DNA from: Engraulis encrasicolus
Lineage: Eukaryota > Chordata > Actinopteri > Clupeiformes > Engraulidae
DNA length: 64,000 nt
Assembly (NCBI RefSeq): GCF_034702125.1
Contig: NC_085860.1
Location: 52,284,393-52,348,392 of the forward strand
Direction of reading: 5' to 3'
Position numbers and translations under genes: made by a program
Notes under the pieces: model-generated
Database searches by the model: none
What the model saw: the letters and a program-made list of their open reading frames with translations, nothing else
What the model was told of the DNA's origin: nothing
Shown here: positions 27,952 through 56,559 of the stretch, one piece after another
How the letters are laid out: every line of letters starts with the position of its first letter
Position numbering within the stretch: the stretch's first letter is position 1

Positions 27952-28110
27952 TCGTCTAATGTATTTTTCCAAGGGGACCATTCGGATAAAACTTGAGACC
28001 ATTCATATTAGGCATGGGGCGTTTTGTCGAGGAAGTTCCGTCTACCACAAAGACCTACGAAACGTCCTTAAATTTGAACTAAACATCCTTAGGTTTGAAC
28101 TAAACGTCCC
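27952..28110 (+). repeat. left terminal inverted repeat with AAACGTCC motifs
   Basis: Outer ~35 bp matches the right end at about 85%. Inside are three spaced AAACGTCC/AAACATCC words with GAACTAAACGTCC context (about 28057-28110), typical of sub-terminal transposase-binding repeats (inference). Confidence 0.75.
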
Positions 28111-28802
28111 TTCAGGCTGCCTATTTTGTTGAATAGTTTTTGTTGGAAATCGTCCATCAATCCCTTCAAGCCTGCAGGCTGCCAATTTTGTTTTAATTTT
28201 TGTTGATTTAAAAATGTAGCCTATATCAGCTCTTTTAACACTCATTTTAACTTTTTTGTTGTTGATTTAAATGTAAATCAGCTGTTGTTCATTTTAACTG
28301 TAAAGACAATATAGAGCTCTTCAGCGTTGACGTCAACTTGTATGCGGCGTTTGGACTACTGGTTCCCTGGCGATTTTTTACATTGCAAAACGCCATAGGG
28401 ATTCAGGTTTGGCAAAAATATAAGTTGCACGGCAACAACGAACATTAGCGTGTCCCCGCATCCCTTTCTCATTAGTGGAACGGATCGTATCATCATGTTG
28501 GTGTAGTCACATGTTAAATCATGACGATTTTAATTCAATATTGCTAACCCCTTTCTGATCATTAAAACTTCCGAACTACATGCAGTTGTCTCTTACCTGT
28601 TACATCATCCGTGGTACGCTACATCACGATTCACAACAAGCACTTAGTTAGCTACTCTAACTACATATCTAGCTACTGACCTTGATAGCCACTACATACA
28701 CTGTACTTTTTCATATTATATATTACACACACAAACAAAATGGCAATACCTCTTCATGCCATTATGTTATTCTTCGAAAACGAAAAAAAAAAGTGTAGTT
28801 AG
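28111..28802. other. left sub-terminal region of the giant element
   Basis: Positions 28111-28320 match 54375-54560 in the same (direct) orientation, for example TTTTTGTTGGAAATCGTC. A palindromic TGACGTCA (CRE-like) is at 28328-28335, about 470 bp before the first nuclease exon seen. A start codon exon for the nuclease gene may lie here but was not found. Confidence 0.5.
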
Positions 28803-28911
28803 GGGTGAGAACCATTTTAACTCGGGACATGTGGAGGAGTTCCGCTATGTTGCAGGTTGTCTTGCAGGTGCAGTCAGGGCCAGCATGAGAGATAGACTGT
28901 ACAAGGTGTCG
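28803..28911 (+). pseudogene. SWIM-YqaJ nuclease gene, upstream exon
   Basis: A 109-bp exon encodes GENHFNSGHVEEFRYVAGCL, then AGAVRASMRDRLYKVS. The SGHV...V(R)xSM(R)xxxYxV pattern is what precedes the SWIM finger in YqaJ-type transposon proteins. Acceptor TAGTTAG, donor TCG followed by GTAAGT, phase 0 into the next exon. Reversed relatives of this exon lie at about 43930-43655 and 44240-44110. Classed as pseudogene because the next exon has a nonsense codon. Confidence 0.75.
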
Positions 28912-29308
28912 GTAAGTTGATATAGGGTGGCACATCATTGAAGCACTACAGTTCTACAGTGATTTAACAGATACTGAGTAAGGCTACCATGCTTTGAAAT
29001 AAGAGCAGTTGTTTTTACTCTGTTTAAATGTACACAAATGTAGGCTACCAACAACACTAATAAGCTAGCCAAGAGCCTGAACTGAAAAACAAATGAAAGG
29101 AAGACAGAATGAATGAACACTTTTATTATTCAATTTAATTTAATTAATATCAAGAACAATAGAACACAATGTCAAATGCTATGCTTAATTTTTTAATATA
29201 TTATCATTGACAACGAAGTATTTCAGTGTTGAGGTTTGCACTGCTTTGAGGTCACCAGGTCAACGTTTGATCTAACAAAGTAATGTGTGCTTTGCTCACA
29301 TTTAACAG

Positions 29309-30346
29309 GTTTACATAAACACAAATGGTGAAATTCAATCCACCTGGTGTGAATGCCCCCGGGGAGAGCACAAATGCAGCCATGCAGTAGCCCTCTGCAT
29401 GGTGGGCCACCACAATTTGAGCCGCACTGATGTGGAGTGTGTATGGAAAAGGCCAAAGGTTGCAAATGTAGACCACTCAGCTGAAGTCCTTTTTCCCCGC
29501 AAGCCATATGAGTCACTGGCAAGGCAGCCCTGTGAGGAGGACCGTGAATGGCTGAGGCAACGCCTGGCCGGAAAGGGGACGGGCATAGGCTGGCTCCTTG
29601 CTCCCGAGCCACAGCCAGAAGCACCGGCACCAGTGCTGGCTTTCTCTGTCCCAGAAGTCATCAGGTAGAGGCTGCACATGGGTGTCGACAGTGTCCTCGA
29701 CAGTCTGTCTGTGTCTGGTCCACAGCAGGAAGCTGTACAACTGGCAACAGTGGGCCAGCGCACCAATCCTCTCTGGCACAAGCTCCGTGAAGGGAGACTG
29801 ACGGCAAGCAATTTTGGTGCTGTTCTCCGTGCCAAGCGAGTTACAGCCTCTCTTCTCACCAGAGTCCTGGGCCACAACAGCCTGGATGGGGTTCTATCTG
29901 TGGAGTGGGGGTTGAAAAATGAGAAGGAAGCTGTCAAATTGTTTTCTGTCTCCACTGGCCTGAAAGTACAGGACAGTGGGTTGTGGCTGTCACCATCGGG
30001 CATCTTGGGGGCATCTCCAGATGGTCTTGTGGAGGATGAGGCTCTCCTTGAGGTGAAATGCCCATACACAGTCCGCAACATGCTCATCCAAGAGGCTGTG
30101 AACACCAAGGGCTTTTACATCAAAGAACACGAAGGCTCGTACCGCCTGGATGATGAGCACCCTTACTGGCACCAGGTCCAGGGCCAGCTTCATGTGGCCC
30201 AGAAGGAGGCATGCTATTTCGTTGTCTGGACCACCAAAGACGGCCTCATCATCCGCATCACCCGCGATCCGGCATGGCAGACAAACCTGCAGATTTTAGA
30301 AAACTTTTTTACATCACACATGCTCCCACAAATTATGAAACAGTGA
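29309..30346 (+). pseudogene. SWIM zinc finger + YqaJ exonuclease exon with one nonsense codon
   Basis: A 346-codon exon follows acceptor TTTAACAG. Residues about 14-25 form a SWIM finger, CECPRGEHKCSH (C-x-C-x6-C-x-H; 29348-29383). Codons from 29774 on form a YqaJ/lambda-exonuclease PD-(D/E)xK fold: WHKLREGRLTASNFG, GASPDGLV (Asp at 30020), LEVKCP (Glu at 30050, Lys at 30056) and YWHQVQGQLHV. The Asp-10-Glu-2-Lys spacing matches lambda exonuclease. The protein ends MLPQIMKQ and stop. An in-frame TAG at 29666-29668, between the finger and the nuclease, would cut it; the related copy at 43.4 kb has CAG there. The gene is convergent with the transposase copies. In ISL2EU-like elements the nuclease is a companion of unproven function. 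Confidence 0.88.
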
Positions 30347-30514
30347 ACCATTTGTGTGTTTACAAAGTTATTTGTATACATATGTATACATTGTGTACAT
30401 TTGTATATATATATATGTGTATGCTGAGCTGCCCTAGCCCCAGACCAGACTCTTGACAGGTGTGTGTGTGTGTGTGTGTTGTCTACTCTACTTAAAAAAA
30501 AAAACAAAAAAAAA

Positions 30515-30656
30515 CCCTTCTTTGCGTCTTGCACTTGTTGTTTTGTATATTACCGGTGCACTTTGTATCTGCTAGTGATGTTGGCTATGATTATGTCCTC
30601 GTTTGTAAGTCGCTTTGGTTATAAAGCGTCTGCCAAAAGCAATGTAATGTAATGTA
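30515..30656 (+). mobile_element. L2 LINE 3' tail
   Basis: Reads TCGTTTGTAAGTCGCTTTGG, then AAAGCGTCTGCCAAAAGC, then TGTAATGTAATG. Only the tail is present. Confidence 0.75.
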
Positions 30657-30690
30657 AAATATTTGTTATAGTTCATGATTGTTAAAAGAA

Positions 30691-30705
30691 CCCCCCCCCC
30701 CCCCC

Positions 30706-30742: not shown

Positions 30743-30744
<2 letters not shown>

Positions 30745-33196: not shown

Positions 33197-35639
33197 TGCC
33201 TTAACAATAGTGTTAAATTAATAATAATGAATAATTAAATTAGATTATTCATGGAAACTGACAGACAAGTACAGCTGAGTAACGTTTTTTAAATTAACAT
33301 TTTTAAAATTTAAGTTGCATGTTGCATTACACGAATTGTCCATCAATCGCACACAGGGAAGAAAATGTAGGCATACCAACACAATTCACCTGGATGTTTG
33401 TGTTCATTTGCAAAGCGTAGCATGAAACATTTTTCAGTTTCCCTTTTATTGTTGAAAATGACCGTTCATATGTTCGATCACCTATAATTCTTGCCATTCA
33501 AACATTTTGAGAACACATTTTAAACATATATACTAGCACTTTGCAATGCAATTGAAAGGCCGATAAACATTTCCCAAAATTCTACAAAGTGATGCACTGT
33601 TTTGGTAATGAATGTACAACCTACATGTTCACCATTGGCATAAACTTGAAACCACTTCTTCACTGACTATGTTATGCATGGGGAAACCACTGGAACCTGT
33701 ATCAGAATTTGTTGGAGTTGCATCTTAAACTTCACATCTTCAACGGCTGCTATCTATCTATCTGCTGGGTACATATTAAAGGAATGGTAGTGCTGGTTAG
33801 GATAACCATCTTTAATTAGAGTCAGTTAACTGAAGGACTGTATTTCCACCTGTCACTTTTCATGCAACATTAACATGACTATATCTCTTACTTTGTACAG
33901 TTAAAAAAACACAATCTGTACTTGGTTGGTACAATGACATCCATTATGAACATGACGTGACCATTGAAAAACAACAGACAAAGTGAGTACCTTTTCAAAC
34001 TTTAATTAATTAACACACCATATTTATACATTAACATTAACAGCACATTAGGCATTTTGTCAGAACAGGTGAGTGCTGCATTAGTAAATTACTGTTGCAA
34101 CATTTGTTCATATTCTGATACAAACAGGCCATTCTGGAACACCACAAGAACTTGGAGAAAGCAAACAAGTGCACATTCAGGCACTTAAGTTAGTCTTTAG
34201 CCAACATTACCAATAACCTTATCAATTCGAATGTAAATCTTGTCCAATTCCCATGGTGGTGAAAAAAAAGAGATGTTGGAACTGGTGGGACAGGCAGTTG
34301 AACAGAGTCAGTGTGTGAGGGCAATATGACTTCTTGGCATTGAACTTCCACGGATATTATACATTCCAAACATAGGCAATGGACATGGTTGGTTTAAGGG
34401 TCCACATGCAGTTGACATGGTGAGTAGACATTGTGCTACATGTTGAAGAAGCTGCCGTTCAGATTATGTTTACAGTACACTCCTGAAGTTGATGGGACCA
34501 TGGGCTTGCCTTGGTAGTCTGGCAGAGAAAGTTCACTGAAAGCTGCTGTGTGGAAAACTGGTACTGGGACAGGGTAAATGACAGCATTTTGCTGTATGGT
34601 ACAGCACTAGTGGCAGTGAAAAAGATGTTGCGAATGTCACATTTGATCTACAAATGGCGGTGAATAGCATGTCAGATGGAGTTAGAATTACAGTACACGT
34701 TGGCAGTACATTCGTGAGGTTAAAGGCACTGGCAGGTTTAACATTGTTCAGACACAGGCAGTGGACATAGTGGATAAGTCAGGGTACACATGTTGGTATA
34801 ACAACACTTTGCAAGTTGGTGATGTAATGCTCTATGCAGCACGTTCACATTTTAACGGAATCCATAGTCATAAGTTCAGGGGAAGACAGACAGACTGTAT
34901 CAGACTGTACCGGAATTCAGTTAACATACTGGTATTGCTAAGCTGGAAGGAGGCATAGTGGACAGTGGCATTGCAGAGGGACAAAGACAGTGTTAAGAGT
35001 TCAGGACTACACAGGCTGCAAACATACTGCCATCACAGTTTGAGGGACACCGGCAGGAAGGACACAGGCTGAGCAGAACATCTTTGAGGAGTTGAGGGGA
35101 GCACTGGCAGTGTTATAGCTCAGGAGAAAACAGCCCATGGCTTACGTGGAAAGAGGATTTCAGCTGACGTGTGTTCTTTTGCAGCTTTTGGGCCTTTTCC
35201 CATACACAAGAACTATACAGAGGGCAAGTTGTTGAAATAATAGCTTGAGGGATCACAGGTATCAGATGATTCTGTTGTCATTCTACCACTCTGGGCTTTT
35301 TTCGTGAGCAATTCACATGACTGTGGCTAAAACTGTGGTGGGCAGTCATGCAGAGGGTCTGCTGTTAATTACAGCATTTATACTGTACACACAGGACTAC
35401 ACAGCCAGCTCAAATATTTGCATTGATTTACAGTAAAGCGGCACTAGACATTCTCAAGGAGGCGTAGTGGACAGTGGCATTGCCGTTTCAGGGGTAGACA
35501 GTGTTGGAGTTCAGGAGTACACAGGCAGGCAGGACAAAGATACTGGACTTGGTGTATGAGGCATAGTGGACAGTGGCATTACAGCTTGAGGGTCAAAGGC
35601 AGGCAGGTCAAAGGTACTGGACTAAGTGTGTGAGGCATT

Positions 35640-35765
35640 GTGTTCACAGCCTCTTGGATGAGCATGTTGCGGACTGTGTACGGGCATTTTACCTCAAGGA
35701 GAGCCTCATCCTCCACAAGACCATCTGGAGATGCCTGATGGTGACAACCACAACCCACTGTCATG
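35640..35765 (-). pseudogene. YqaJ active-site fragment at the array edge
   Basis: The minus strand encodes HHQASPDGLVEDEALLEVKC, then PYTVRNMLIQEAVNT, the catalytic segment of the nuclease with its Asp, Glu and Lys. It is flanked on both sides by satellite words. This segment is otherwise absent from the array. Confidence 0.85.
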
Positions 35766-38700
35766 CAACTTCAAGCCAGTGGAGACTGAAAACAATTTTA
35801 ACAGCTTCCTTCTCATTTTTTAACCCTCACTCAACTGATGGAACCCCATCCAGGCTGTTGTGGCCCAGGACACTGGTGAGAAGAGAGGGTGTAACTCGCT
35901 TGGCACGGAGAACAGCACAGGTACTGGACTTGGTGTATGAGGCAAAGTGGACAGGTGGCAGTCAGGTCACAGGCAGTTATGTCAGGGGTACTGGAAGTAA
36001 TGTGTGAGGCATAGTAACTCGCAGGAGGCAGGCATGTCACAACTACTGGATTTGGTGTATGACACATATTGGACAGTGGCATTACCGCTTGAGGGTCAAA
36101 GGTACTGGACTTAATGTGGCATTACAGCTTGAGGGTCAAAGGCAGGCAGGTCAAAGGTACTTGACTTACTGTGTGAGGCATAGTAGACAGGAGGCAGACA
36201 GGACACAGGCAGGCAGAACACAGGTACTGGACTTAGTGTGTGAGGCATAGTGGACAGGAGGCAGGCAGGACACAGGCAGGCAGGGCACAGGTACTGGACT
36301 TAGTGTGTGAGGCATAGTGGACAGTGGCATTACAGACAGAGGGTCACAGGCGGTTAGTTAACATATTGCTGCTCGGAAAACACGTACTGAACTCAGTGAT
36401 GGCCCTGGAGCAAAACAATTTGACAGCTTCCTTCTCATTTTTCAACCCCCACTCCACAGATAGAACCCCATCCAGGCTGTTGTGGCCCAGGACTCTGGTG
36501 AGAAGAGAGGCTGTAACTCGCTTGGCACGGAGAACAGCAAAGCTACTGGACTTGGTGTATGAGCCATAGTGGACAGGAGGCAGGCAGGACACAGGCAGTT
36601 ATGTCAGGGGTACTGGAATTAATGTTTGAGGTATAGTAACTCGCTTGGCACGGAGAACATCACCAAAATTGTTCGCTGTCAGTCTCAGGAGGCAGACAGG
36701 TCAAAGGTACTTGACTTACTGTGTGAGGCATAGTAGACAGGAGGCAGACAGGACACAGGCAGGCAGAACACAGGCTTAGTGTATGAGGCATAGTGGACAG
36801 TGACATTACAGCTTGAGGGTCAAAGGTACTGGACTTAGTGTGTGGAGCATAGTGGACAGGAGGCAGGCAGGACACAGGCAGGCAGGACACAGGTACTGGA
36901 CTTAGTGTGTGAGGCATAGTACCTCGCTTGGCACGGAGAACAGCACCAAAATTGTTCGCTGTCAGTCTCAGGAGGCAGACAGGTCAAAGGTACTGGACTT
37001 AGTGTGTGAAGCATAGTGGACAGGAGGCAGGCAGGACACAGGCAGGCAGGGCACAGGTACTGGACTTAGTGTGTGAGGCATAGTGGACAGTGGCGTTATC
37101 GCTTGAGGGTCAAAGGTACTGGACTTAATGTGTGAAGCATAGTGGACAGGAGGCATGCAGGACACAGCTACTGGAATTAATGTTTGAGGTATAGTGGATA
37201 GTGGCATTACAGCTTGAGGGTCAAAGGCAGGCAGGTCAAAGGTACTGGACTTAATGTGTGAAGCATAGTGGACAGGAGGCATGCAGGACACAGCTACTGG
37301 ACTTAGTGTATGAGGCATAGTACCTCGCTTGGCACGGAGAACAGCACCAAAATTGTTCGCTGTCAGTCTCAGGAGGCAGACAGGGCACAGGTACTGGACT
37401 TAGTGTGTGAAGCATAGTGGACAGGAGGCAGGCAGGACACAGGCAGGCAGGGCACAGGTACTGGACTTAGTGTATGAGGCATAGTGGACAGTGGCGTTAC
37501 CGCTTGAGGGTCAAAGGTACTGGACTTAGTGTGTGAAGCATAGTGGACAGTGGCATTACAGCTTGAGGGTCAGAGGCGGGCGGTTAACATACTGGTATTG
37601 CTGCTCGGAAAACACGTACTGAACTCAGTGATGGACCTGGTGCCAGTAAGGGTGCTCATCATCCAGGCGGTATGAGCCTTCATGTTGTTTAATGTAGAAG
37701 CCGTTGGTGTTCACAGGCTCTTGGAGGGGCATGTTGGCGGAGGCAGGCAGGACACAGGCAGGCAGGGCACAGGTACTGGACTTAGTGTGTGAGGCATAGT
37801 GGACAGTGGCGTTACCGCTTGAGGGTCAAAGGTACTGGACTTAATGTGTGAAGCATAGTGGACAGGAGGCATGCAGGACACAGCTACTGGACTTAGTGTA
37901 TGAGGCATAGTGGACAGTGGCATTACAGCTTGAGGGTCAAAGGCAGGCAGGTCAAAGGTACTTGACTTACTGTGTGAGGCATAGTAGACAGGAGGCAGAC
38001 AGGACACAGGCAGGCAGAACACAGGTACTGGACTTAGTGTGTGAGGCATAGTGGACAGTGGCGTTACCGCTTGAGGGTCAAAGGTACTGGAGTAAGTGTG
38101 TGAAGCATAGTTGACAGGAGGCAGGCAGGACACAGGTACTGGACTTAGTGTATGAGGCATCGTGGACAGTGGCATTACAGCTTGAGGGTCAAAGGCAGGC
38201 AGGTCAAAGGTACTTGACTTACTGTGTGAGGCATAGTAGACAGGAGGCAGACAGGACACAGGCAGGCAGAACACAGGCTTAGTGTATGAGGCATAGTGGA
38301 CAGTGGCGTTACCGCTTGAGGGTCAAAGGTACTGGAGTAAGTGTGTGAAGCATAGTTGACAGGAGGCAGGCAGGACACAGGCAGGCAGGACACAGGTACT
38401 GGACTTAGTGTATGAGGCATAGTGGACAGTGGCGTTACAGACAGAGGGTCACAGGTGGGCAGTTAACATATTTCTGCTCGGAAAACACGTACTGAACTCA
38501 GTGATGGCCCTGGTGCCAAACAATTTAACAGCTTCCTTCTCATTTTTTAACCCTCACTCCACTGATGGAACCCCATCCAGGCTGTTGTGGCCCAGGACTC
38601 TGGTGAGAAGAGAGGGTGTAACTCGCTTGGCACGGAGAACAGCACAGGTACTGGACTTGGTGTATGAGGCAAAGTGGACAGGTGGCAGTCAGGTCACAGG

Positions 38701-41700
38701 CAGTTATGTCAGGGGTACTGGAATTAATGTGTGAGGCATAGTAACTCGCTTGGCACGGAGAACATCACCAAAATTGTTCGCTGTCAGTCTCAGGAGGCAG
38801 ACAGGGCACAGGTACTTGACTTACTGTGTGAGGCATAGTAGACAGGAGGCAGACAGGACACAGGCAGGCAGAACACAGGCTTAGTGTATGAGGCATAGTG
38901 GACAGTGACATTACAGCTTGAGGGTCAAAGGTACTGGACTTAGTGTGTGAAGCATAGTGGACAGGAGGCAGGCAGGACACAGGCAGGCAGCTTAGTGTAT
39001 GAGGCATAGTGGACAGTGGCATTACAGCTTGAGGGTCAGAGGCGGGCGGTTAACATACTGGTATTGCTGCTCGGAAAACACGTACTGAACTCAGTGATGG
39101 ACCTGGTGCCAGTAAGGGTGCTCATCATCCAGGCGGTATGAGCCTTCATGTTGTTTAATGTAGAAGCCGTTGGTGTTCACAGGCTCTTGGAGGGGCATGT
39201 TGGCGGAGGCAGGCAGGACACAGGTACTGGACTTGGTGTATGAGGCATAGTGGACAGTGGCGTTACCGCTTGAGGGTCAAAGGTACTGGACTTAATGTGT
39301 GAAGCATAGTGGACAGGAGGCAGGCAGGATACAGGCAGGCAGGACACAGGTACTGGACTTAGTGTATGAGGCATAGTGGACAGTGGCGTTACTGCTTGAG
39401 GGTCAAAGGTACTGGACTTACTGTGTGAAGCATAGTGGACAGGAGGCATGCAGGACACAGCTACTGGACTTAGTGTATGAGGCATAGTGGACAGTGGCAT
39501 TACAGCTTGAGGGTCAAAGGCAGGCAGGTCAAAGGTACTTGACTTACTGTGTGAGGCATAGTAGACAGGAGGCAGACAGGACACAGGCAGGCAGAACACA
39601 GGCTTAGTGTATGAGGCATAGTGGACAGTGGCGTTACCGCTTGAGGGTCAAAGGTACTGGACTTAATGTGTGAAGCATAGTTGACAGGAGGCAGGCAGGT
39701 CAAAGGCAGGCAGGTCAAAGGTACTTGACTTACTGTGTGAGGCATAGTAGACAGGAGGCAGACAGGACACAGGCAGGCAGAACACAGGCTTAGTGTATGA
39801 GGCATAGTGGACAGTGACATTACAGACAGAGGGTCACAGGCGGGCAGTTAACATATTGCTGCTCGGAAAACACGTACTGAACTCAGTGATGGCCCTGGAG
39901 CCAAACAATTTAACAGCTTCCTTCTCATTTTTTAACCCTCACTCCACTGATGGAACCCCATCCAGGCTGTTGTGGCCCAGGACTCTGGTGAGAAGAGAGG
40001 GTGTAACTCGCTTGGCACGGAGAACAGCACAGGTACTGGACTTGGTGTATGAGGCAAAGTGGACAGGTGGCAGTCAGGTCACAGGCAGTTATGTCAGGGG
40101 TACTGGAATTAATGTGTGAGGCATAGTAACTCGCTTGGCACGGAGAACAGCACCAAAATTGTTCGCTGTCAGTCTCAGGAGGCAGGTAGGTCACAGGTAC
40201 TGGACTTGGTGTATGAGGCAAAGTGGACAGGTGGCAGTCAGGTCACAGGCAGGCAGGACAAAGATACTGGACTTGGTGTATGACGCAGAGTGGACAGTGG
40301 CGTTACCGCTTGAGGGTCAAAGGTACTGGACTTAATGTGTGAAGCATAGTGGACAGGAGGCATGCAGGACACAGGTACTGGAATTAATGTTTGAGGTATA
40401 GTGGATAGTGGCATTACAGCTTGAGGGTCAAAGGCAGGCAGGTCAAAGGTACTGGACTTAATGTGTGAAGCATAGTGGACAGGAGGCATGCAGGACACAG
40501 GCAGGCAGGGCACAGGTACTGGACTTAGTGTGTGAGGCATAGTGGACAGTGGCGTTACCGCTTGAGGGTCAAATGTACTGGAGTAAGTGTGTGAAGCATA
40601 GTTGACAGGAGGCAGGCAGGACACAGGCAGGCAGGACACAGGTACTGGACTTAGTGTATGAGGCATAGTGGACAGTGGCGTTACAGACAGAGGGTCACAG
40701 GCGGGCAGTTAACATATTGCTGCTCGGAAAACACGTACTGAACTCAGTGATGGCCCTGGACCTGGTGCCAAACAATTTAACAGCTTCCTTCTCATTTTTT
40801 AACCCTCACTCCACTGATGGAACCCCATCCAGGCTGTTGTGGCCCAGGACTCTGGTGAGAAGAGAGGGTGTAACTCGCTTGGCACGGAGAACAGCACAGG
40901 TACTGGACTTGGTGTATGAGGCAAAGTGGACAGGTGGCAGTCAGGTCACAGGCAGTTATGTCAGGGGTACTGGAATTAACGTGTGAGGCATAGTAACTCG
41001 CTTGGCACGGAGAACAGCACCAAAATTGTTCGCTGTCAGTCTCAGGAGGCAGGCAGGTCAAAGGTACTGGACTTAGTGTGTGAAGCATAGTGGACAGGAG
41101 GCAGGCAGGACACAGGCAGGCAGGTCAAAGATACTGGACTTGGTGTATGAGGCATAGTGGACAGTGGCATTACAGCTTGAGGGTCAAAGGCAGGCAGGTC
41201 AAAGGTACTTGACTTACTGTGTGAGGCATAGTAGACAGGAGGCAGACAGGACACAGGCAGGCAGAACACAGGCTTAGTGTATGAGGCATAGTGGACAGTG
41301 ACATTACAGCTTGAGGGTCAAAGGTACTGGACTTAATGTGTGAAGCATAGTGGACAGGAGGCATGCAGGACACAGCTACTGGACTTAGTGTATGAGGCAT
41401 CGTGGACAGTGGCATTACAGCTTGAGGGTCAAAGGCAGGCAGGTCAAAGGTACTTGACTTACTGTGTGAGGCATAGTAGACAGGAGGCAGACAGGACACA
41501 GGCAGGCAGGGCACAGGTACTGGACTTAGTGTGTGAGGCATAGTGGACAGTGGCGTTACCGCTTGAGGGTCAAAGGTACTGGACTTAATGTGTGAAGCAT
41601 AGTGGACAGGAGGCAGGCAGGACACAGGCAGGCAGGACACAGGTACTGGACTTAGTGTGTGAGGCATAGTGGACAGTGGCATTACAGCTTGAGGGTCAGA

Positions 41701-43087: not shown

Positions 43088-43485
43088 CACTGTTTCATAG
43101 TTTTTGGGAGCATGTGTGCTTTAAAAAAGTTCTCTAAAATCTGCAGGTTTGACTCCCTTGCCGGATCAAGGATGATGCGGATGATGAGGCTGTCTTTGGT
43201 GGTCCAGACAACGAAATAGCATGCCTCCTTCTGGGCCACATGAAGCTGGCCCTGGACCTGGTGCCAGTGAGGGTGCTCATCATCCAGGCGGTACGAGCCT
43301 TCGTGATTGGTGCGCTGGCCCACTGTTGCCAGTTGTACAGCTTCCTGCTGTGGACCAGACACAGACAGTCGAGGACACTGACGACACCCATGTGCAGCCT
43401 CTGCCTGATGACTTCTGGGACAGAGAAAGCCAGCACTGGTGCCGGTGCTTCTGGCTGTGGCTCGGGAGCAAGGAGTCAGCCTATT
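43088..43485 (-). pseudogene. second SWIM-YqaJ copy, catalytic core deleted
   Basis: The minus strand reads from the linker (LAFSVPEVIRQRLHMGV) across a frameshift to QQEAVQLATVGQRTN, then jumps straight to HEGSYRLDDEHPHWHQVQGQ and runs to the end MLPKTMKQ and stop. The segment with WHKLREGRL, SPDG and EVKCP is missing. It keeps CAG where the copy at 29666 has TAG. It lies at the upper end of the satellite. Confidence 0.88.
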
Positions 43486-43639
43486 CAGGTCAGGTCACAG
43501 GCAGGCAGGACAAAGATACTGGACTTGGTGTATGACGCAGAGTGGACAGGAGGCAGGCAGGACACAGGCAGGCATGTCACAACTACTGGATTTGGTGTAT
43601 GACACATATTGGACAGTGACATTACAGCTTGAGGGGGAG

Positions 43640-43925
43640 ACCTTACTCAGTATCTGTGAAATCACTGCAGTTGCTTCAATGATGTGCCACCCTACATCAA
43701 ATTACCAATACTTGGTACAGTCTATCTTTCATGCTGGCCTTGACTGCACCTGCAAGACAATCTTCAACGCAGCGGAATTCCTCCACATGTCCAGAGTTAA
43801 AATGGTTCACACCCCTAACTACACTTTTTTTTATCGTTTTGAAAGAATGACACCATGGCATGAAGAGGTATTGCCATTTTGTTTATGTGTGTAATATATA
43901 ATATGAAAAAAATACCGGCTATAGG
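43640..43925 (-). pseudogene. copy of the nuclease upstream exon and flanks
   Basis: The complement matches 28712-28990 closely: AATGGCAATACCTCTTCATG, GTGTAGTTAGGGGTG, then the SGHVEEFR-coding exon and the GGGTGGCACATCATTGAAGC intron stretch. So intron and exon were copied together, as DNA. A shorter third piece lies at about 44110-44240. Confidence 0.88.
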
Positions 43926-44532
43926 GTCACAGGCAGGCAGGCAGGTCAAAGGTACTGGACTTGGTGTATGAGGCATAGTGGACAGTGGCATTACAGCTTG
44001 AGGGTCAAAGGTACTGGACTTAATGTGTGAAGCATAGTGGACAGGCAGGCAGGCAGGTCAAAGGTACTGGACTTGGTGTATGAGGCATAGTGGACAGTGG
44101 CATTACAGCTTGAGGAGAAGACAGTGCACAGTGCAAGACAACCTTCAACGTAGCGGAATTCCTTCACATGTCCTGAGTTTAAGTTGTTTTCACCCCTAAC
44201 TACACTTTTTATCGTTTTGAAAGAGCGACAATGGACTTGGTGTATGAGACACAGTGGACAGGTGACATTACAGCTTGAGGGGGTACACTGTGCACAGGAC
44301 ACACAGGCAGGCATGTCACAGGTACTGGAATTAATGTGTGAGGCACAGTGGACAGTGGCATTACAGCTTGAGGGTCACAGGCAGGCAGGTCAAAGGTACT
44401 GGACTTAGTGTATGAGCCATAGTGGACAGGAGGCAGGCAGGCAATGTCACAGGTACTGGAATTAATGTGTGACATAGGCAGGGAGATCACAGACACTCGG
44501 TGAAGGAGTCTTAGTGGACAGTGGCATTGCAG

Positions 44533-45725
44533 GTACAATCGAATGTTTAATGTTTCATTGTTTCACAATAGCATGAGTGCTTTAAGAAAGTTCTCTAAAA
44601 TTTGCAGTTTTGACTGCCATGCTGGATCGCTGGTGATGCTAAATATAAGGTGCCATGTGGTGCTACTCCCACCAACAATTTGAATGAGTGCATGCCACGG
44701 TAAACTGAGTACACTGCTTTCTGCTTGTCCATGCCTTTTGGTTTTTCCATTTCAATGTCAGTACAGTCAATCATCATTCTGCAGTCAGGAAATTTAGAAA
44801 ATGATGCCGGCATTTCTGGGCGTTTTTTTTGACGACTTGGAACAGTGGACATTATGTCGTTGAAGAGCAGTGTGTGAAGAACATCAAAGAAGATGTGAAT
44901 GATGCTGCTGACTGTGGCTATACCACAATGGAAAAGTGAGGCCAGGTGAAGGTGCGTGTAATTTTTTCGGAGTTTCATTAACGTCACAAAGATTTGGTCC
45001 TCTAGGCTGATGGACTCCACTTTCCATTTGCTGTAGTAGATGACAGAGGACTCAAAGCGTGCCACATATTCCACCACAGTCAAGAATGTGTCCCTGTCCG
45101 GTAAGCCTGTCTCCATTCTGAGGACTTCTTCAGAGACGGAGGAAGCGGAGTACACATTTCGGCCATATGTTATTTTCTCTTCTGCATCATGTAACTTGGC
45201 CTTTGTGTTCTCAAGCTCATTCTGCAGAAGGATGCGGTGCATTCGCTCTTCATGCAAGGCTTTAAACAAAGCAGAGTAGCTCATTTCATTTTCTGAAGTA
45301 CCCCCTGCACGGTCCACATTCTCCTCGTCCACATCTGATAGTGTCATCCATAGCGAGAAAACCTGAGTCCCCCTCAACATAGCTTGTGTCAATGTTGCCA
45401 GCATGTGAGCCATCAAGTGTGCTTACAAAAGATCTACAGGTGCCTATGCCTCTGAAAACAAAGAATTTGCCATACCTGTGCCCATGTCGGTGTCCTCGTC
45501 ACACTCCAAAATGTCGTGCCCGTTTTGGTCCATCTGAACAGGTCCCTCAGAACAATCCACCTTTGGCTCTGAAAACAGACTGTTTACTGTCTCCACCATA
45601 CCTGTTTGAATGCCTGCGACCATGCCTGTGTCCATGCCTGCGACCATGCCTGTGCCCATGCCCTGTAGTGGGCCCACATCTGCCACGGCATGTGATTCAG
45701 AAAATGACTGAGCCAACCTTCATCT
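44533..45725 (-). pseudogene. transposase unit 1, truncated, fused to nuclease tail
   Basis: Encodes the coiled N-terminal part (VDRAGGTSENEMSYSALFKA), the helix-turn-helix region (LEDQIFVTLMKLRKNYTHLH) and the first catalytic block MIDCTDIEM. At VGVAPHGT (about 44665) it runs into the complement of the YqaJ gene end (GGATCGCTGGTGATGCT...CTCTAAAATTTGCAG). The second Asp and the Glu are lost. A 2-bp deletion near 45343 also breaks the start region. Cannot be active. Confidence 0.88.
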
Positions 45726-46858
45726 TCCAGCCAGTGTAAACTTCAATACAGCCTGAGGTCCCCTCAACTCCTGGAATGCAATGCCAAAATCAGTATAATT
45801 GCCTCTAACCTACTTGATTCCTTGATAAATGGGGCACTCAATCACAGTCAAAAGATCTACAGGTGCCTCTGCCTCTGAAAACAAAGAATTTGCCATACCT
45901 GTGCCCATGTCGGTGTCCTCGTCACACTCTAAAATGTCGTGCCCGTTTTGGTCCATCTGAACAGGTCCCTCAGAACAATCCACCTTTGGCTCTGAAAACA
46001 GACTGTTTACTGTCTCCACCACACCTGTTTGAATGCCTGCGACCATGCCTGTGTCCCTCTGAAAACACAGACCCAGGATATGCTTCACTGCAGTATGTGA
46101 TGGTGCCATGTGGTGCTACTCCCACCAACAATTTGAATGAGTGCATGCCACGGTAAACTGAGTACACTGCTTTCTGCTTGTCCATGCCTTTTGGTTTTTC
46201 CATTTCAATGTCAGTACAGTCAATCATCATTCTGCAGTCAGGAAATTTAGAGAATGATGCCGGCATTTCTGGGCGTTTTTTTTTTTGACGACTTGGAACA
46301 GTGGACATTATGTTGTTGAAGAGCAGTGTGTAAAGAACATCAGAGAAGGTGTGAATGATGTTGCTGACTGTGGCTATACCACAATGGAAAAGTGAGGCCA
46401 GGTGAAGGTGCGTGTAATTTTTTCGGAGTTTCATTAACGTCACAAAGATTTGGTCCTCTAGGCTGATGGACTCCACTTTCCATTTGCTGTAGTAGATGAC
46501 AGAGGACTCAAAGCGTGCCACATATTCCACCACAGTCAAGAATGTGTCCCTGTCCGGTAAGCCTGTCTCCATTCTGAGGACTTCTTCAGAGACGGAGGAA
46601 GCGGAGTACACATTTCGGCCATATGTTATTTTCTCTTCTGCATCATGTAACTTGGCCTTTGTGTTCTCAAGCTCATTCTGCAGAAGGATGCGGTTCATTC
46701 GCTCTTCATGCAAGGCTTTAAACAAAGCAGAGTAGCTCATTTCATTTTCTGAAGTACCCCCTGCACGGTCCACATTCTCCTCGTCCACATTCTCCTCGTC
46801 CACATCTGATAGAGTGTCATCCATTGCGAGAAAACCTGAGTCCCCCTCAACATAGCTT
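45726..46858 (-). pseudogene. transposase unit 2, internal deletion
   Basis: The frame 46824-45970 starts MDDTLSDVDEENVDEENVDR and includes MIDCTDIEM. After SEAYPGSV it joins DNA of the upstream linker exon, losing the ADKGF and HVERAIGRL blocks. The A tract after PSRQ is 11 long, giving KKKR instead of KKR. The stretch below about 45850 repeats the 3' flank of the other units. Confidence 0.85.
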
Positions 46859-47440
46859 GTGTCAATGTTGCCAGCATGTGAGCCATCAAGTGTGCTTACA
46901 AAAGATCTACAGGTGCCTATGCCTCTGAAAACAAAGAATTTGCCATACCTGTGCCCATGTCGGTGTCCTCGTCACACTCCAAAATGTCGTGCCCGTTTTG
47001 GTCCATCTGAACAGGTCCCTCAGAACAATCCACCTTTGGCTCTGAAAACAGACTGTTTACTGTCTCCACCATACCTGTTTGAATGCCTGCGACCATGCCT
47101 GTGTCCCTCTGAAAACAAAGAATTTGCCATACCTGTGCCCATGTCGGTGTCCTCGTCACACTCTAAAATGTCGTGCCCGTTTTGGTCCATCTGAACAGGT
47201 CCCTCAGAACAATCCACCTTTGGCTCTGAAAACAGACTGTTTACTGTCTCCACCACACCTGTTTGAATGCCTGCGACCATGCCTGTGTCCATGCCTGTGT
47301 CCATGCCTGCGACCATGCCTGTGTCCATGCCTGCGACCATGCCTGTGTCCATGCCCTGTAGTGGGCCCACATCTGCCACGGCATGTGATTCAGAAAATGA
47401 CTGAGCCAACCTTCATCTTCCAGCCTGTGTAAACTTCAAG
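46859..47440 (-). repeat. duplicated linker-exon pieces of the transposase gene
   Basis: Two successive copies of the linker exon (VETVNSLFSEPKVDCSEGPV, then DQNGHDILECDEDTDMGTG), each next to a block of 12-bp MDTG/MVAG codons, with no DDE domain between them. Confidence 0.85.
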
Positions 47441-47530
47441 ACAGCCTGTGGTCCCCTCAACTCCTGGAATGCAATGCCAAAATCAGTGTAATTGCCTCTA
47501 ACCTACTTGATTCCTTGATAAATGGGGCAC

Positions 47531-48621
47531 TCAATCACAGTCAATGTTTTTGATTAGAGGGTTCTGCAGATTGACCAAGGCACAGCACAGTTGAAAAATT
47601 TGCCCAGCATGAGGTCGAAGGCTCCATTGCATGCTGTTCAGGATCTCAAAGTCTTTCAGCCTTCCAATAGCCCGTTCAACATGGATCCTGTTCTTTGCAA
47701 TGTCCTTGGTTGCCTCAACTTCACTATTTGTGAGTCTGCCGTGATTGAGAAACGGTGGGATGTTCAAAATAACGCCAGGTGGTAACAAGTGCTGAATGTG
47801 AAAGCCTTTATCAGCAAGTATCTGGTCTCCGGCCACAAAAATTTCACAAATGCCAGATTCCTCTACAATAGTTTTGTCAGACACAGACCCAGGATATGCT
47901 TCACTGCAGTATGTGATGGTGCCATGTGGTGCTACTCCCACCAACAATTTGAATGAGTGCATGCCACGGTAAACTGAGTACACTGCTTTCTGCTTGTCCA
48001 TGCCTTTTGGTTTTTCCATTTCAATGTCAGTACAGTCAATCATCATTCTGCAGTCAGGAAATTTAGAAAATGATGCCGGCATTTCTGGGCGTTTTTTTGA
48101 CGACTTGGAACAGTGGACATTATGTCCTTGAAGAGCAGTGTGTAAAGAACATCAAAGAAGGTGTGAATGATGTTGCTGACTGTGGCTATACCACAATGGA
48201 AAAGTGAGGCCAGGTGAAGGTGCGTGTAATTTTTTCGGAGTTTCATTAACGTCACAAAGATTTGGTCCTCTAGGCTGATGGACTCCACTTTCCATTTGCT
48301 GTAGTAGATGACAGAGGACTCAAAGCGTGCCACATATTCCACCACAGTCAAGAATGTGTCCCTGTCCGGTAAGCCTGTCTCCATTCTGAGGACTTCTTCA
48401 GAGACGGAGGAAGCGGAGTACACATTTCGGCCATATGTTATTTTCTCTTCTGCATCATGTAACTTGGCCTTTGTGTTCTCAAGCTCATTCTGCAGAAGGA
48501 TGCGGTGCATTCGCTCTTCATGCAAGGCTTTAAACAAAGCAGAGTAGCTCATTTCATTTTCTGAAGTACCCCCTGCACGGTCCACATTCTCCTCGTCCAC
48601 ATCTGATAGAGTGTCATCCAT
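47531..48621 (-). pseudogene. transposase unit 3, frameshifted in an A tract
   Basis: The N-terminal frame (48621-48043) and the C-terminal frame (48082-47531) are both long and well preserved, including MIDCTDIEM, ILADKGF and HVERAIGRLK. They are thrown out of register at about 48091, where the A tract is 7 long; units 1 and 4 have 8. A single-base loss therefore splits an otherwise complete DDE protein. Confidence 0.9.
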
Positions 48622-48659
48622 AGCGAGAAAACCTGAGTCCTGTTGCCAGCATGTGAGCC

Positions 48660-49087
48660 ATCAAGTGTGCTTACAGGTGCCTCTGCCTCTGAAAACAAAG
48701 AATTTGCCACACCTGTGCCCATGTCGGTGTCCTCGTCACACTCCAAAATGTCGTGCCCGTTTTGGTCCATCTGAACAGGTCCCTCAGAACAATCCACCTT
48801 TGGCTCTGAAAACAGACTGTTTACTGTCTCCACCATACCTGTTTGAATGCCTGCGACCATGCCTGTGTCCATGCCTGTGTCCATGCCTGCGACCATGCCT
48901 GCGTCCATGCCTGCGACCATGCCTGTGTCCATGCCTGCGTCCATGCCTGCGACCATGCCTGTGTCCATGCCTGCGACCATGCCTGCGACCATGCCTGTGT
49001 CCATGCCTGTGTCCATGCCTGTGTCCATGCCCTGTAGTGGGCCCACATCTGCCACGGCATGTGATTCAGAAAATGACTGAGCCAACC
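48660..49087 (-). repeat. expanded MDTG/MVAG linker of unit 3
   Basis: About 16 copies of a 12-bp unit (CATGCCTG(T/C)G(T/A)CC on the plus strand; 48847-49035) encode M-D-T-G or M-V-A-G, followed by the VNSLFSEP linker. Unit 4 has only about four copies, so the tract changes length quickly. Confidence 0.93.
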
Positions 49088-49206
49088 TTCATCTTCCAGC
49101 CTGTGTAAACTTCAAGACAGCCTGTGGTCCCCTCAACTCCTGGAATGCAATGCCAAAATCAGTGTAATTGCCTCTAACCTACTTGATTCCTTGATAAATG
49201 GGGCAC

Positions 49207-50313
49207 TCAATCACAGTCAATGTTTTTGATTAGAGGGTTCTGCAGATTGACCAAGGCACAGCACAGTTGAAAAATTTGCCCAGCATGAGGTCGAAGGCTC
49301 CATTGCATGCTGTTCAGGATCTCAAAGTCTTTCAGCCTTCCAATAGCCCGTTCAACATGGATCCTGTTCTTTGCAATGTCCTTGGTTGCCTCAACTTCAC
49401 TATTTGTGAGTCTGCCGTGATTGAGAAACGGTGGGATGTTCAAAATAACGCCAGGTGGTAACAAGTGCTGAATGAGAAAGCCTTTATCAGCAAGTATCTG
49501 GTCTCCGGCCACAAAAATTTCACAAATGCCAGATTCCTCTACAATAGTTTTGTCAGACACAGACCCAGGATATGCTTCACTGCAGTATGTGATGGTGCCA
49601 TGTGGTGCTACTCCCACCAACAATTTGAATGAGTGCATGCCACGGTAAACTGAGTACACTGCTTTCTGCTTGTCCATGCCTTTTGGTTTTTCCATTTCAA
49701 TGTCAGTACAGTCAATCATCATTCTGCAGTCAGGAAATTTAGAAAATGATGCCGGCATTTCTGGGCGTTTTTTTTGACGACTTGGAACAGTGGACATTAT
49801 GTCGTTGAAGAGCAGTGTGTAAAGAACATCAAAGAAGGTGTGAATGATGTTGCTGACTGTGGCTATACCACAATGGAAAAGTGAGGCCAGGTGAAGGTGC
49901 GTGTAATTTTTTCGGAGTTTCATTAACGTCACAAAGATTTGGTCCTCTAGGCTGATGGACTCCACTTTCCATTTGCTGTAGTAGATGACAGAGGACTCAA
50001 AGCGTGCCACATATTCCACCACAGTCAAGAATGTGTCCCTGTCCGGTAAGCCTGTCTCCATTCTGAGGACTTCTTCAGAGACGGAGGAAGCGGAGTACAC
50101 ATTTCGGCCATATGTTATTTTCTCTTCTGCATCATGTAACTTGGCCTTTGTGTTCTCAAGCTCATTCTGCAGAAGGATGCGGTGCATTCGCTCTTCATGC
50201 AAGGCTTTAAACAAAGCAGAGTAGCTCATTTCATTTTCTGAAGTACCCCCTGCACGGTCCACATTCTCCTCGTCCACATTCTCCTCGTCCACATCTGATA
50301 GAGTGTCATCCAT
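49207..50313 (-). CDS. DDE transposase, best-preserved copy (unit 4)
   Basis: A 368-residue open frame. Residues about 1-85 are acidic and coiled-coil-like; about 120-165 form the helix-turn-helix (LEDQIFVTLMKLRKNYTHLH, then FHCGIATVSNII); about 195-345 are the DDE nuclease: MIDCTDIEM (Asp201, with Asp204 the alternative), ILADKGF (Asp276) and HVERAIGRLK (Glu321). This is the DDE_Tnp_4 family used by Harbinger- and ISL2EU-type elements; it would cut and rejoin the element ends. The frame is open upstream of Met1, with GNIDTSYVEGDSGFLA. However, the linker exon just above runs in another frame and stops at 50406-50408, so this copy may not make the full THAP-DDE protein. Confidence 0.88.
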   Translation of the reverse strand: MDDTLSDVDEENVDEENVDRAGGTSENEMSYSALFKALHEERMHRILLQNELENTKAKLHDAEEKITYGRNVYSASSVSEEVLRMETGLPDRDTFLTVVEYVARFESSVIYYSKWKVESISLEDQIFVTLMKLRKNYTHLHLASLFHCGIATVSNIIHTFFDVLYTLLFNDIMSTVPSRQKKRPEMPASFSKFPDCRMMIDCTDIEMEKPKGMDKQKAVYSVYRGMHSFKLLVGVAPHGTITYCSEAYPGSVSDKTIVEESGICEIFVAGDQILADKGFLIQHLLPPGVILNIPPFLNHGRLTNSEVEATKDIAKNRIHVERAIGRLKDFEILNSMQWSLRPHAGQIFQLCCALVNLQNPLIKNIDCD

Positions 50314-50408
50314 TGCGAGAAAACCTGAGTCCCCCTCAACATAGCTTGTGTCAATGTTGCCAGCATGTGAGCCATCAAGTGTGCTTACAAAAGATCTACA
50401 GGTGCCTA

Positions 50409-50730
50409 TGCCTCTGAAAACAAAGAATTTGCCATACCTGTGCCCATGTCGGTGTCCTCGTCACACTCCAAAATGTCGTGCCCGTTTTGGTCCATCTGAA
50501 CAGGTCCCTCAGAACAATCCACCTTTGGCTCTGAAAACAGACTGTTTACTGTCTCCACCATACCTGTTTGAATGCCTGCGACCATGCCTGTGTCCATGCC
50601 TGCGACCATGCCTGTGCCCATGCCCGCGTGCCTGGTCTGAGTTGGCCAGAATCTTGGCCCCGCCTTCTTGCCCTTCGGAAAATGGCAGCTGCAAACCCGG
50701 GAGGTAGCAGCTGGTCTCCTGTCAGCACGT
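50409..50730 (-). CDS. transposase gene, second THAP half and linker
   Basis: After acceptor CTCCTTCAG at 50731 the frame reads RADRRPAATSRVCSCHFPKG. It supplies the C-x2-H half of a THAP zinc finger, then about four MVAG/MDTG units (about 50575-50625) and the linker VETVNSLFSEPKVDC...CDEDTDMGTG. Phase joins exactly with the THAP exon 53760-53648. It ends at TAG (50406-50408), out of frame with the DDE part at 50313. A frameshift in this copy, or unusual splicing, must be assumed. Confidence 0.82.
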
Positions 50731-52284: not shown

Positions 52285-52366
<82 letters not shown>

Positions 52367-53647: not shown

Positions 53648-53760
53648 CTTAGCTTATGAGCCCACTCTCGCCGCTTTCTTTCATCTGTAGGAAAGCGGTA
53701 AAAACTACAAATCTTCCTTGAAGAACGGTGGGAACATCCCGGTGCAAAACAAAAAACCAT
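53648..53760 (-). CDS. THAP zinc finger, first exon of the transposase gene
   Basis: Starts with ATG at 53760 and encodes MVFCFAPGCSHRSSRKICSF, then YRFPTDERKRREWAHKLR, ending at donor AG followed by GTAAGTA (53647). With the exon at 50730 the ligands are Cys4, Cys9, Cys51 and His54: C-x4-C-x41-C-x2-H, inside the THAP consensus, with Pro24 and Trp33 also present. THAP fingers bind the terminal or sub-terminal repeats of their own element. The intron is about 2.9 kb. Only one THAP exon is seen for all the tandem DDE units. Confidence 0.92.
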
Positions 53761-54016
53761 CTTTGTTGATGCAATATGTACAATGCGACGCTGGGAAAAA
53801 ATCTTGGTAACGTGAAAGACGATGAATATATTTATATATATATATATATATTGCTAAACGTGAAAGACTATAAATACTTGTGGTTAAAGTGAAAGACGAG
53901 CTCTTGCTAAACGCTGGAAGGATGCTATCAAAAAGCGGATGAGAGGACGATCGAGAGCTCGAGCCCGAACTTATACTTTCCTTTGGTTGCCATGGATACA
54001 ACCCTCCGCACGTACA

Positions 54017-54024
54017 TGACGTCA
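54017..54024. promoter_or_regulatory. CRE-like TGACGTCA upstream of the THAP exon
   Basis: Perfect CREB/ATF palindrome 257 bp upstream of the transposase ATG, in a locally more GC-rich stretch. The same octamer lies upstream of the nuclease exons at 28328. One octamer is weak evidence on its own. Confidence 0.35.
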
Positions 54025-54324
54025 GATACAGGCGCCGCTTCTGTAGTCGCCAAAAGTTTCCGGGTTTAGCATATGGACGCAACATCGTATTTATGTCGAA
54101 GTTTGACACAAAATGATCAACCATGTCATACCTACAGCCTATTTTTAACACCCTCGCCAGTTTGCGGGGGTTCGCTAAGCGCGTGCTTGCACTCGGAGCT
54201 TATTTGAAATTTACCCCTATTCATTCCCAATGGAGGCCGGAAGCCGATAGGAACCAGGACGTCCTTAAATGCTAACATGAAAGACTACAATCTACTACAT
54301 GCTTCCGCTTCCGCTGAAGAACTC

Positions 54325-54880
54325 TATTCTTGAGCAATTATTTTCTTTGTATTAGGCCTCATTATCAAATAAGCTGGTAGCTGCCTATTCTGTTTTTTAG
54401 TTTTTGTTGGAAATCGTCGTCAATCCCTTCAGGCTGCCTATTTTGTTTTTATAGTTTTTCTTGTTTTATCTACTAAGCCTATTAGGCTATTTGTTATTTA
54501 AAAATGTAAATCAGCTGTTTGTAATGCTCATTTTAACTGTAAAGGCAATGCTCTTGAGGAATTATTTTATTTGTTGCCTATTAGGCCTATAATGTTCATT
54601 ATTAAATAAGCTGGTAGGCTTAGGCTACATAACACTGCCTTTAACGCATCACCTTTAGGCATACACTAGCTTATTTTGTTTTAATAGGCTATTTTTTAGG
54701 CCTATTTAATTAAAAAATGTAAATCAACTGCTCTAACGCATCACCTTTACGCCCATTTTAACTGTAATGGCAACGCTCTTGAGCAATTGTTTTATTTCTG
54801 TTAGGTAGGCATATATTGTTCGTTATTATAAACAAGCTGTTCCCCCTAGGCTAGATAATTCTGCCTTTAACGCATCATCT
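54325..54880 (+). repeat. three ~224-bp tandem units near the right end
   Basis: CTTGAGCAATTATTTTCTTTG-like starts at about 54331, 54552 and 54776. Shared words are AACGCATCACCTTTA, AAATGTAAATCA(G/A)CTG and ATTTTAACTGTAA(A/T)GGCAA. Part of the unit recurs at 28111-28320 in the same direction. Confidence 0.75.
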
Positions 54881-56399
54881 TTATAATGTAGTATAATGCA
54901 GTTACATTAGGCCTATTTATTTTTTTAACACAAGAAACATACACATCTCTGTTACATATTAGCACTGGTGGTTTGTTTTTAAAACCTACCATTGCTTTAC
55001 ATTTACACCCAAAGGTTGGGTAAGTTGTAAAAGGGGGAAGGTTAGTTGTAACACATGCTGAAAAGATTTATTTAAACAATTAATTCAGTATAATTTCACC
55101 ATAAGTCTGTTTGTTTATAAATCTATGATACTTAAAGATACTTTGTTAGCAAACACTCTAATAAAAAAATAAGTAGATAGGCTTTAGAGGCTTACATTTT
55201 ATTAGTAATTAAAAAATCACAAAATCCAATTTCACAGTATAGCCTAATAGTAACTTTTATAATCAATTTTTTCAAGAAAAAGGACGAAGGTCCGAAACGT
55301 CGTGCAAATAAATCACTGGGAGCATTAACAGTGTAGACTTCTATCATTTATTTTAGATATTCATGGCCCCATGGTCTATCAACCCCTGCCTTACCGTTGT
55401 AGGGAAACGCCCTTTAATTACATTAAATATTTAGGGCACAAGCGCATAAATGGCTACATGTAGGCCCACGTTCACATTGCTTATTTCCGGCTCCACAGAC
55501 GACAGAACCGGCTCTGATTATTATGGACAGGACAGTGACTACTGAGTGATTACTGCATGACTTTCGCATTAGCTTGCCGTCATTTAAAAGACATGAAAAT
55601 CACTCACGTGCACACGCGCATAACAATGTATGAGTTGCAAAGATAACAACAGAAAACAACAAAAAGAAAGACAGGACAGAATTAAACTACATGAAAATAG
55701 TGCAGGGGCATGAAAATAAGATGGACATTCAGTGCATGTGTAGGTGGCACGGTGGGCACATGAAATGGAACGCAGACGTGCACCTGAAGAAGTTCATGAA
55801 GGGAATAGGGCTAAAGTATCCCCTTTTTATTATAATAGCCTACCAGTGAGAGCGTGCAGGCAAGATAACCTGTGCAACGTGCGTGGAATAATTAGATTAC
55901 ACTACGCAGACGGGCTACGAGAGGCGCGCGAGAGAAAGACTGTGCGAGGCTGTTTGGGAGTTTTCACACATCGCGACTGATTGACAGAGAGAGCGCGATG
56001 GTTGGTTTAGTCTGCAAAACTATTATAGCCAAGAACCAACGGCAATCGACCTTGAGATAGCATGCGGTTCTCCAGGCTCCTGGCCACAAAAGAAAAAACT
56101 TATTGGGATCGAGCGTTTTGTCGCTTGATTTTCAACATTACAGTGTGGCGCATTGGATAGAGTTTTCTTTGGCTCAGTTCAGTGTAGCGCCCTGGCCGAT
56201 CTGGCATTACCTCAGTTAGGCTACTCTGATTTCACGACATATTATCTTGTGTGCTGATAGTATAGCGTGTCTTCCGAAGCTCGTCTGAGAGCTCTGACAA
56301 TTCTTACAAGTTATCGTGCATAACATGGTTACATTTTTGTTTTGTGGTCATTGCATTGTGATGGTAGGTACACACGTTTAATAAAATATGAAAATAATA
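54881..56399. other. right sub-terminal region of the giant element
   Basis: No gene was recognised. A hairpin with GAAAC resembling part of a hammerhead ribozyme or Penelope-type tail is at 55282-55303. The rest is AT-rich unique-looking DNA. Confidence 0.5.
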
Positions 56400-56559
56400 A
56401 TAAAATTGGCAGACTGAACTAAACGTCTGCCCAGTTGCATGAAAGGTCTGCCTGGGTTGAACAGAACGTCCTTAGGTCTTCCACGAAACGTCCTCAGGTA
56501 CTCTACGAAACGCCCCAAGCTTTATACAAATGGTCCCCTCGGAAAAATTCATTAGACGA
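56400..56559 (-). repeat. right terminal inverted repeat with AACGTCC motifs
   Basis: Complement of the left end. It carries GAACTAAACGTCTGCC, GAACAGAACGTCCTTAGG, CACGAAACGTCCTCAGG and TACGAAACGCCCC words. It ends 58 bp from the coding exon at 56618. Confidence 0.75.

What the first reader, a model, noticed from the sequence alone, without database searches (positions are those of the whole stretch)
27952..56559. A 28.6-kb transposon-like unit fills a once tiny rnf213 intron
Imperfect inverted repeats stand 190 bp from one coding exon and 58 bp from the next. Everything between them is mobile-element DNA: a nuclease gene at one end, a transposase gene at the other, and satellite in between. 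Without it the intron would be about 250 bp, normal for a fish. DNA transposons of this size with recognisable ends are rare, and the gene stays open-framed on both sides, so the transcript must splice across it.
Basis: partly seen in the sequence, partly recalled or inferred. Interest (0 to 1): 0.92.

Follow-up and report, generated by a model that had tools for sequence, protein, structure and literature searches.

The report
Oversized jumping gene inside rnf213
A known kind of animal jumping gene, swollen to about 28.6 kb partly by repeated copying of pieces of its own two genes, sits inside what would otherwise be a tiny intron of a fish rnf213 gene; the family is known, the size and the internal repetition are unusual.

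Summary
Imperfect inverted ends (27943-28033 vs 56568-56477, 73%, E=5e-11) flank 28.6 kb in one rnf213 intron, 190 and 58 bases from coding exons that, joined as protein, match solved RNF213 with no gap at the joint. The content fits ISL2EU, a two-gene animal DNA transposon group: at the left a YqaJ exonuclease gene (one in-frame stop), at the right, convergent to it, a THAP + HTH + DDE transposase gene. Published autonomous ISL2EU elements average ~4.84 kb (PMC4482050, passages). About 59% of this copy is repeated inside itself: a ~9.5-kb satellite array with 24 pieces of the nuclease locus, 24 of 24 inverted, and four tandem transposase exons, 94-99% alike. No second end was found inside and no match to the flanks. 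Not shown: a target-site duplication, an empty site, other copies, or movement as one unit; the genome search did not complete 12 times. I favour one ISL2EU insertion whose interior grew by tandem amplification. New variant of a known kind; moderate interest.

The parts
27930..28139 (+). left inverted end; best-matched core 27952-28007
56391..56578 (-). right inverted end; best-matched core 56504-56559
28058..28109 (+). subterminal short repeats
   Evidence: 5 of 5 window matches of CTAAACGTCC (up to 1 mismatch, both strands searched) lie here or at 56419-56493, all on the + strand; of 10 matches of GAAACGTCC, 5 lie in the ends and 5 elsewhere
56419..56515 (+). subterminal short repeats of the same type on the right
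   Evidence: tandem row 56465-56512
28885..28911 (+). start of the nuclease gene (MRDRLYKVS), followed by a GTAAGT donor
   Evidence: read; relative P0240 begins MRDRLYKVS
29309..30346 (+). nuclease gene: SWIM-type zinc finger, then YqaJ domain; one in-frame stop at 29666-29668
   Evidence: YqaJ 1.3e-15; SWIM 17.0 bits, below its 19.6 cut-off
35137..44650 (-). satellite array of ~59-67 bp units in higher-order repeats, with pieces of the nuclease locus, all on the minus strand
44649..50629 (-). four tandem copies of the transposase exon, 94-99% alike, with 12-bp minisatellites
49207..50460 (-). uninterrupted 417-residue transposase frame: HTH_Tnp_4 and DDE_Tnp_4, conserved acidic residues kept
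50409..50730 (-). second transposase exon with the C-terminal half of the THAP domain (exon start 50730; its 3' end not fixed)
53648..53760 (-). first transposase exon: start codon and N-terminal half of the THAP domain, then GTAAGTAA donor
   Evidence: THAP 8e-12 on the joined exons, profile positions 1-61 of 87
26499..27761 (-). rnf213 exon downstream of the intron
   Evidence: E 4e-87
56618..56809 (-). rnf213 exon upstream of the intron (5' limit of the exon not fixed)

Best explanation
This is one ISL2EU-type DNA transposon inserted in an rnf213 intron. A THAP-DDE transposase would bind repeated sites near the two inverted ends and cut and paste the unit; an element-encoded YqaJ (lambda-exonuclease-like) enzyme would assist. 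Before or after landing, the interior grew by tandem amplification: a second, inverted and broken copy of the nuclease locus was mixed with ~60-bp satellite units into a ~9.5-kb array, and the transposase exon was multiplied to four copies. The host transcript most likely splices the whole unit out, because the exons on both sides and their splice sites look intact. Shown: ends, genes, array content, uninterrupted flanking exons. Inferred: single origin of the two ends, mechanism of movement, role of the nuclease, time of growth, splicing.
For: Inverted ends above controls. DDE_Tnp_4, HTH_Tnp_4 and THAP in one gene and YqaJ in the other, the pairing published for ISL2EU (PMC4482050, passages; PMC9179366, passages). 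Among the best 120 of 1050 transposase relatives and 119 of the best 120 of 350 nuclease relatives (one has no contig), 11 longest-contig lengths are shared, against a jittered mean of 0.88 and maximum of 5 in 1000 trials; 10 of the 11 share a source and 6 are 2.7-4.6 kb, an indirect sign that the two genes travel together in compact form elsewhere. The core AGGGGACCATT occurs twice in the window, once in each end (23 of 100 shuffles also have two or more matches, so placement matters, not number). No match of the unit in the flanks. 24 of 24 nuclease-locus matches are inverted, one at 100% over 128 bp, and the array abuts the transposase copies, which ties left end, centre and right part together.
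Against: No target-site duplication above chance: best flanking direct repeat 5 bp, reached or beaten in 188 of 1000 shuffles. At the boundary that fits the published A|AT|T target the unit would begin GT/GA, not the usual GG. Left-end subterminal DNA recurs at 54380-54549 in the same orientation, and short inverted matches to 54.5-54.9 kb lie at 32973-33056, which hints at mosaic history. About 4.6 kb (30.4-35.0) and most of 51-56.4 kb are unidentified. The nuclease gene has an in-frame stop. Three of four transposase copies are truncated or split.
Confidence: 0.7

Rival explanations
1. Two or more related elements landed in the intron, partly nested, and recombined; the left and right ends come from different insertions.
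For: A second, inverted and broken nuclease locus lies in the array. Left-end subterminal DNA recurs at 54.4 kb in direct orientation, and a patch near 33.0 kb matches 54.5-54.9 kb in inverted orientation.
Against: No further terminal core found in the window. The two ends face each other as expected of one element and lie close to both exons.
Confidence: 0.2
2. The array and the fourfold transposase copies are partly an assembly artefact, and the true element is shorter.
For: Near-identical tandem copies (94-99%) are where assemblies fail; another 1.3-kb repeat at 99.7% lies in the same window.
Against: Array stretches differ from each other (about 74-98%) and hold varied arrangements of nuclease pieces, unlike a simple repeated-read artefact.
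Confidence: 0.1

Closest known systems
ISL2EU transposons (PHIS superfamily; PMC4482050 and PMC9179366, abstracts and passages)
   Same: Transposase with DDE, HTH and THAP parts; partner gene with a YqaJ exonuclease domain; inverted ends within the published 6-259 bp range; animal host, reported in several teleosts.
   Different: About 28.6 kb against a published mean of ~4.84 kb for autonomous elements; internal satellite array made partly of its own nuclease locus; four tandem transposase exons; AT target duplication and GG start not established.
Galileo and Tetris elements of Drosophila (PMC3688188, PMC4079207; titles and abstract starts in the listing only)
   Same: Tandem repeats in a DNA transposon; for Galileo a THAP domain that binds multiple sites in the inverted repeats.
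   Different: Galileo belongs to the P superfamily and Tetris is a foldback element; nothing I saw gives either a YqaJ gene.
Teratorn and Maverick giant elements (PMC5601938, PMC8097293; titles and abstract starts in the listings only)
   Same: Large DNA elements of vertebrates.
   Different: Those carry virus genes (a herpesvirus in Teratorn, capsid genes in Maverick). Here 9 of the 12 proteins scanned with Pfam come from the unit; their only virus-named matches were the YqaJ 'viral recombinase' and viral alkaline exonuclease models on the nuclease.

Membership tests
ISL2EU | transposase with DDE and HTH domains | tested here: met
   DDE_Tnp_4 1.6e-39 and HTH_Tnp_4 1.7e-13
ISL2EU | THAP domain in the transposase gene | tested here: met
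   THAP 8e-12 on the two exons joined at consensus splice sites; 13 of the best 120 relatives carry PF05485, all of 435 residues or more, while some others of that length do not
ISL2EU | second gene with YqaJ exonuclease domain | tested here: met
   YqaJ 1.3e-15; conserved columns kept; the gene has an in-frame stop
ISL2EU | terminal inverted repeats of 6-259 bp | tested here: met
   imperfect inverted ends of about 190-210 bp
ISL2EU | AT target-site duplication in A|AT|T, ends usually starting GG | tested here: inconclusive
   A|AT|T fits at 27958-27960 / 56551-56553 but with GT and GA starts; no flanking repeat above chance
ISL2EU | transposase groups with ISL2EU in a tree | not tested
   no named ISL2EU reference sequence was fetched and no tree was built
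Kolobok (KolobokE lineage: transposase with a lambda-exonuclease-like nuclease; PMC9587614, passages) | TTAA target-site duplication (recalled) | tested here: not met
   no TTAA among the flanking direct repeats of 3-8 bp listed

The most novel reading that the evidence does not exclude
A giant ISL2EU that moves as a 28.6-kb unit and whose own YqaJ exonuclease, by exposing single strands for annealing, drives the amplification of fragments of its own genes into an internal satellite.
Probability: 0.15. Interest if true: 0.7.

Novelty: new variant of a known kind. Interest (0 to 1): 0.42.

Why it matters
If it is one unit, it is several times the published mean length of ISL2EU and shows a DNA transposon building a satellite from its own gene. 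One paper states that no proof of ISL2EU activity had been reported (PMC9179366, passage), and the passages I read do not settle what the YqaJ partner does; this copy offers a concrete case for asking whether it promotes repeat growth, and how a vertebrate gene tolerates an intron about a hundredfold larger.

Tried and rejected
Rejected: a chance inverted repeat. Rejected on partial evidence: a viral giant element; of 12 proteins scanned with Pfam, 9 from the unit, none matched a capsid or polymerase, but only the longer or suspected frames were scanned. Not accepted: three candidate target duplications (GTCGT, AGCAT, and AT within A|AT|T), none above shuffles. I considered a 16-bp palindromic target, TCGTCTAATTAGACGA, made by joining the flanks at the AT; it is possible, but the seven outer bases may equally belong to the ends.

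Led nowhere: the end pattern in viral contigs gave 4 stretches that agree with the ends only within the pattern; transposase profile in viral contigs (42 pattern matches, 0 relatives) and in genome contigs (34 pattern matches, 0 relatives); nuclease profile in viral contigs gave 31 relatives of 54 pattern matches at 25-31% identity, not followed up. Rfam at gathering thresholds and the tRNA scan gave no match. The rnf213 relatives did not name the species. Literature: no oversized ISL2EU was seen in the rows listed by searches (30 of 109 papers; 14 of 14; 20 of 107; 15 of 80; 12 of 67), nor such an element in rnf213 in one search (10 of 20); mostly titles and abstract starts, open-access papers only.

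Full report
The host gene. The window carries rnf213 on the minus strand. The exon at 26499-27761 matches solved RNF213 chains (E 4e-87), a long exon at 16510-20217 does too, and so does the frame 57066-57332 upstream. The exon ending at 56618 and the one starting at 27761, joined as protein, align to RNF213 with no gap at the joint. The intron between them is 28.9 kb; without the unit it would be about 250 bases (coordinates).

The ends. BLAST pairs 27943-28033 with 56568-56477 in inverted orientation at 73% over 92 columns, E=5e-11. A local alignment of the intron edges runs from 27930 to 28139 and from 56578 to 56391, score 49.5; 0 of 1000 Markov shuffles and 1 of 1744 random pairs of window pieces scored as high (2000 pairs drawn, 256 dropped as closer than 1 kb or as comparing the repeat-rich centre with itself). 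The core AGGGGACCATT occurs twice in the window, once in each end (up to one mismatch; 23 of 100 shuffles also have two or more matches, so it is the placement that counts). A short subterminal motif, CTAAACGTCC, has 5 matches in the window (up to one mismatch, both strands), 5 of 5 within the two ends and on one strand; a second form, GAAACGTCC, has 10, 5 in the ends and 5 elsewhere.

The genes. From the left end runs a nuclease gene: a start stretch MRDRLYKVS with a GTAAGT donor, then a SWIM-type zinc finger (17.0 bits, under Pfam's cut-off of 19.6; 3 of the best 120 relatives carry the SWIM model) and a YqaJ domain (1.3e-15). Eleven chosen relatives, among them fish and a coral, are 46-60% identical, and the invariant acidic and lysine columns are kept. 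One in-frame stop lies at 29666-29668, upstream of the YqaJ domain. From the right end runs a transposase gene: THAP split over two exons with consensus splice sites (joined, 8e-12), then an uninterrupted 417-residue frame with HTH_Tnp_4 and DDE_Tnp_4, 47-61% identical to eleven chosen relatives. Of the best 120 relatives of 1050, 13 carry THAP in the same protein.

Family. THAP + HTH + DDE with a YqaJ partner is the published make-up of ISL2EU (PMC4482050, passages; PMC9179366, passages). Ten of the 11 also share a source, and six are 2732-4619 bases long. This indirect sign suggests that the pair often sits in a compact element; gene order was not seen.

Why it is so long. About 59% of 27930-56578 is repeated within the unit (at least 50 bp, 75% identity). 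Between 35.1 and 44.65 kb lies a satellite of ~59-67 bp units in higher-order repeats. It holds 24 matches to the nuclease locus 28310-30400, 24 of 24 inverted: a 128-bp piece occurs five times at 95-100%, a 51-bp piece seven times, a 110-bp piece three times, and near 43.06-43.91 kb lie longer pieces in gene order with gaps. From 44.65 to 50.63 kb the transposase exon is present four times, 94-99% alike; only the last gives one full-length frame, the others are truncated or split. Taking away the array and three extra copies by arithmetic would still leave roughly 15 kb, so other unidentified DNA (30.4-35.0 kb, most of 51-56.4 kb) also contributes.

One unit or several. For one: no further end found inside, no match to the window's flanks (low-complexity filter on), ends in the right orientation, and nuclease pieces in the centre that link left and right parts. 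Against: subterminal-type DNA at 54380-54549 in direct orientation to the left end, a patch at 32973-33056 that matches 54.5-54.9 kb inverted, an inverted broken nuclease locus, and no target-site duplication: the best flanking direct repeat is 5 bp, matched or beaten in 188 of 1000 shuffles. Han et al. (PMC4482050) give AT within A|AT|T and ends that usually start GG; A|AT|T fits at 27958-27960 / 56551-56553, but the ends would then start GT and GA. This is left open.

Mechanism. By family knowledge, the transposase should bind the end and subterminal repeats by its THAP domain and cut at the ends; the role of the YqaJ enzyme was not stated in the passages I read. That an exonuclease working with strand annealing could favour tandem growth of nearby DNA is my inference. 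The high likeness of the transposase copies fits recent growth, which may postdate insertion. The transposase is on the sense strand of rnf213, so chimeric splicing is possible and should be looked for.

Verdict. Observation confirmed, interpretation partly supported. An ISL2EU insertion in an intron is ordinary; the length and the self-derived satellite are not. The decisive search, other copies and the empty site in the source genome, was asked twelve times and not answered.

Noticed in passing
18896-19026: A 66-bp tandem duplication (93% alike) inside the long rnf213 coding exon; it keeps the frame and adds 22 residues in the AAA region compared with solved RNF213.
   Followed up: partly
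59565-60894 and 61794-63123: Direct repeat of 1330 bp at 99.7% identity, 2229 bp apart, containing 35-bp repeats; recent duplication or assembly effect.
   Followed up: no
1020-1830 and 2154-2963: Inverted repeat with 811-bp arms at 93% identity.
   Followed up: no
23086-23541 and 24428-24793: Inverted repeat in two pieces at 96% and 88% identity.
   Followed up: no
61060-61524: Frame with a CCHC zinc knuckle (Pfam 8.3e-6), perhaps a retroelement remnant.
   Followed up: no
30575-30660: Sequence resembling, from memory, the tail of common fish SINE elements, next to the nuclease gene.
   Followed up: no
36968-42878: Several minus-strand frames of 142-203 codons run through the satellite; probably a by-product of its 126-bp repeat.
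   Followed up: no
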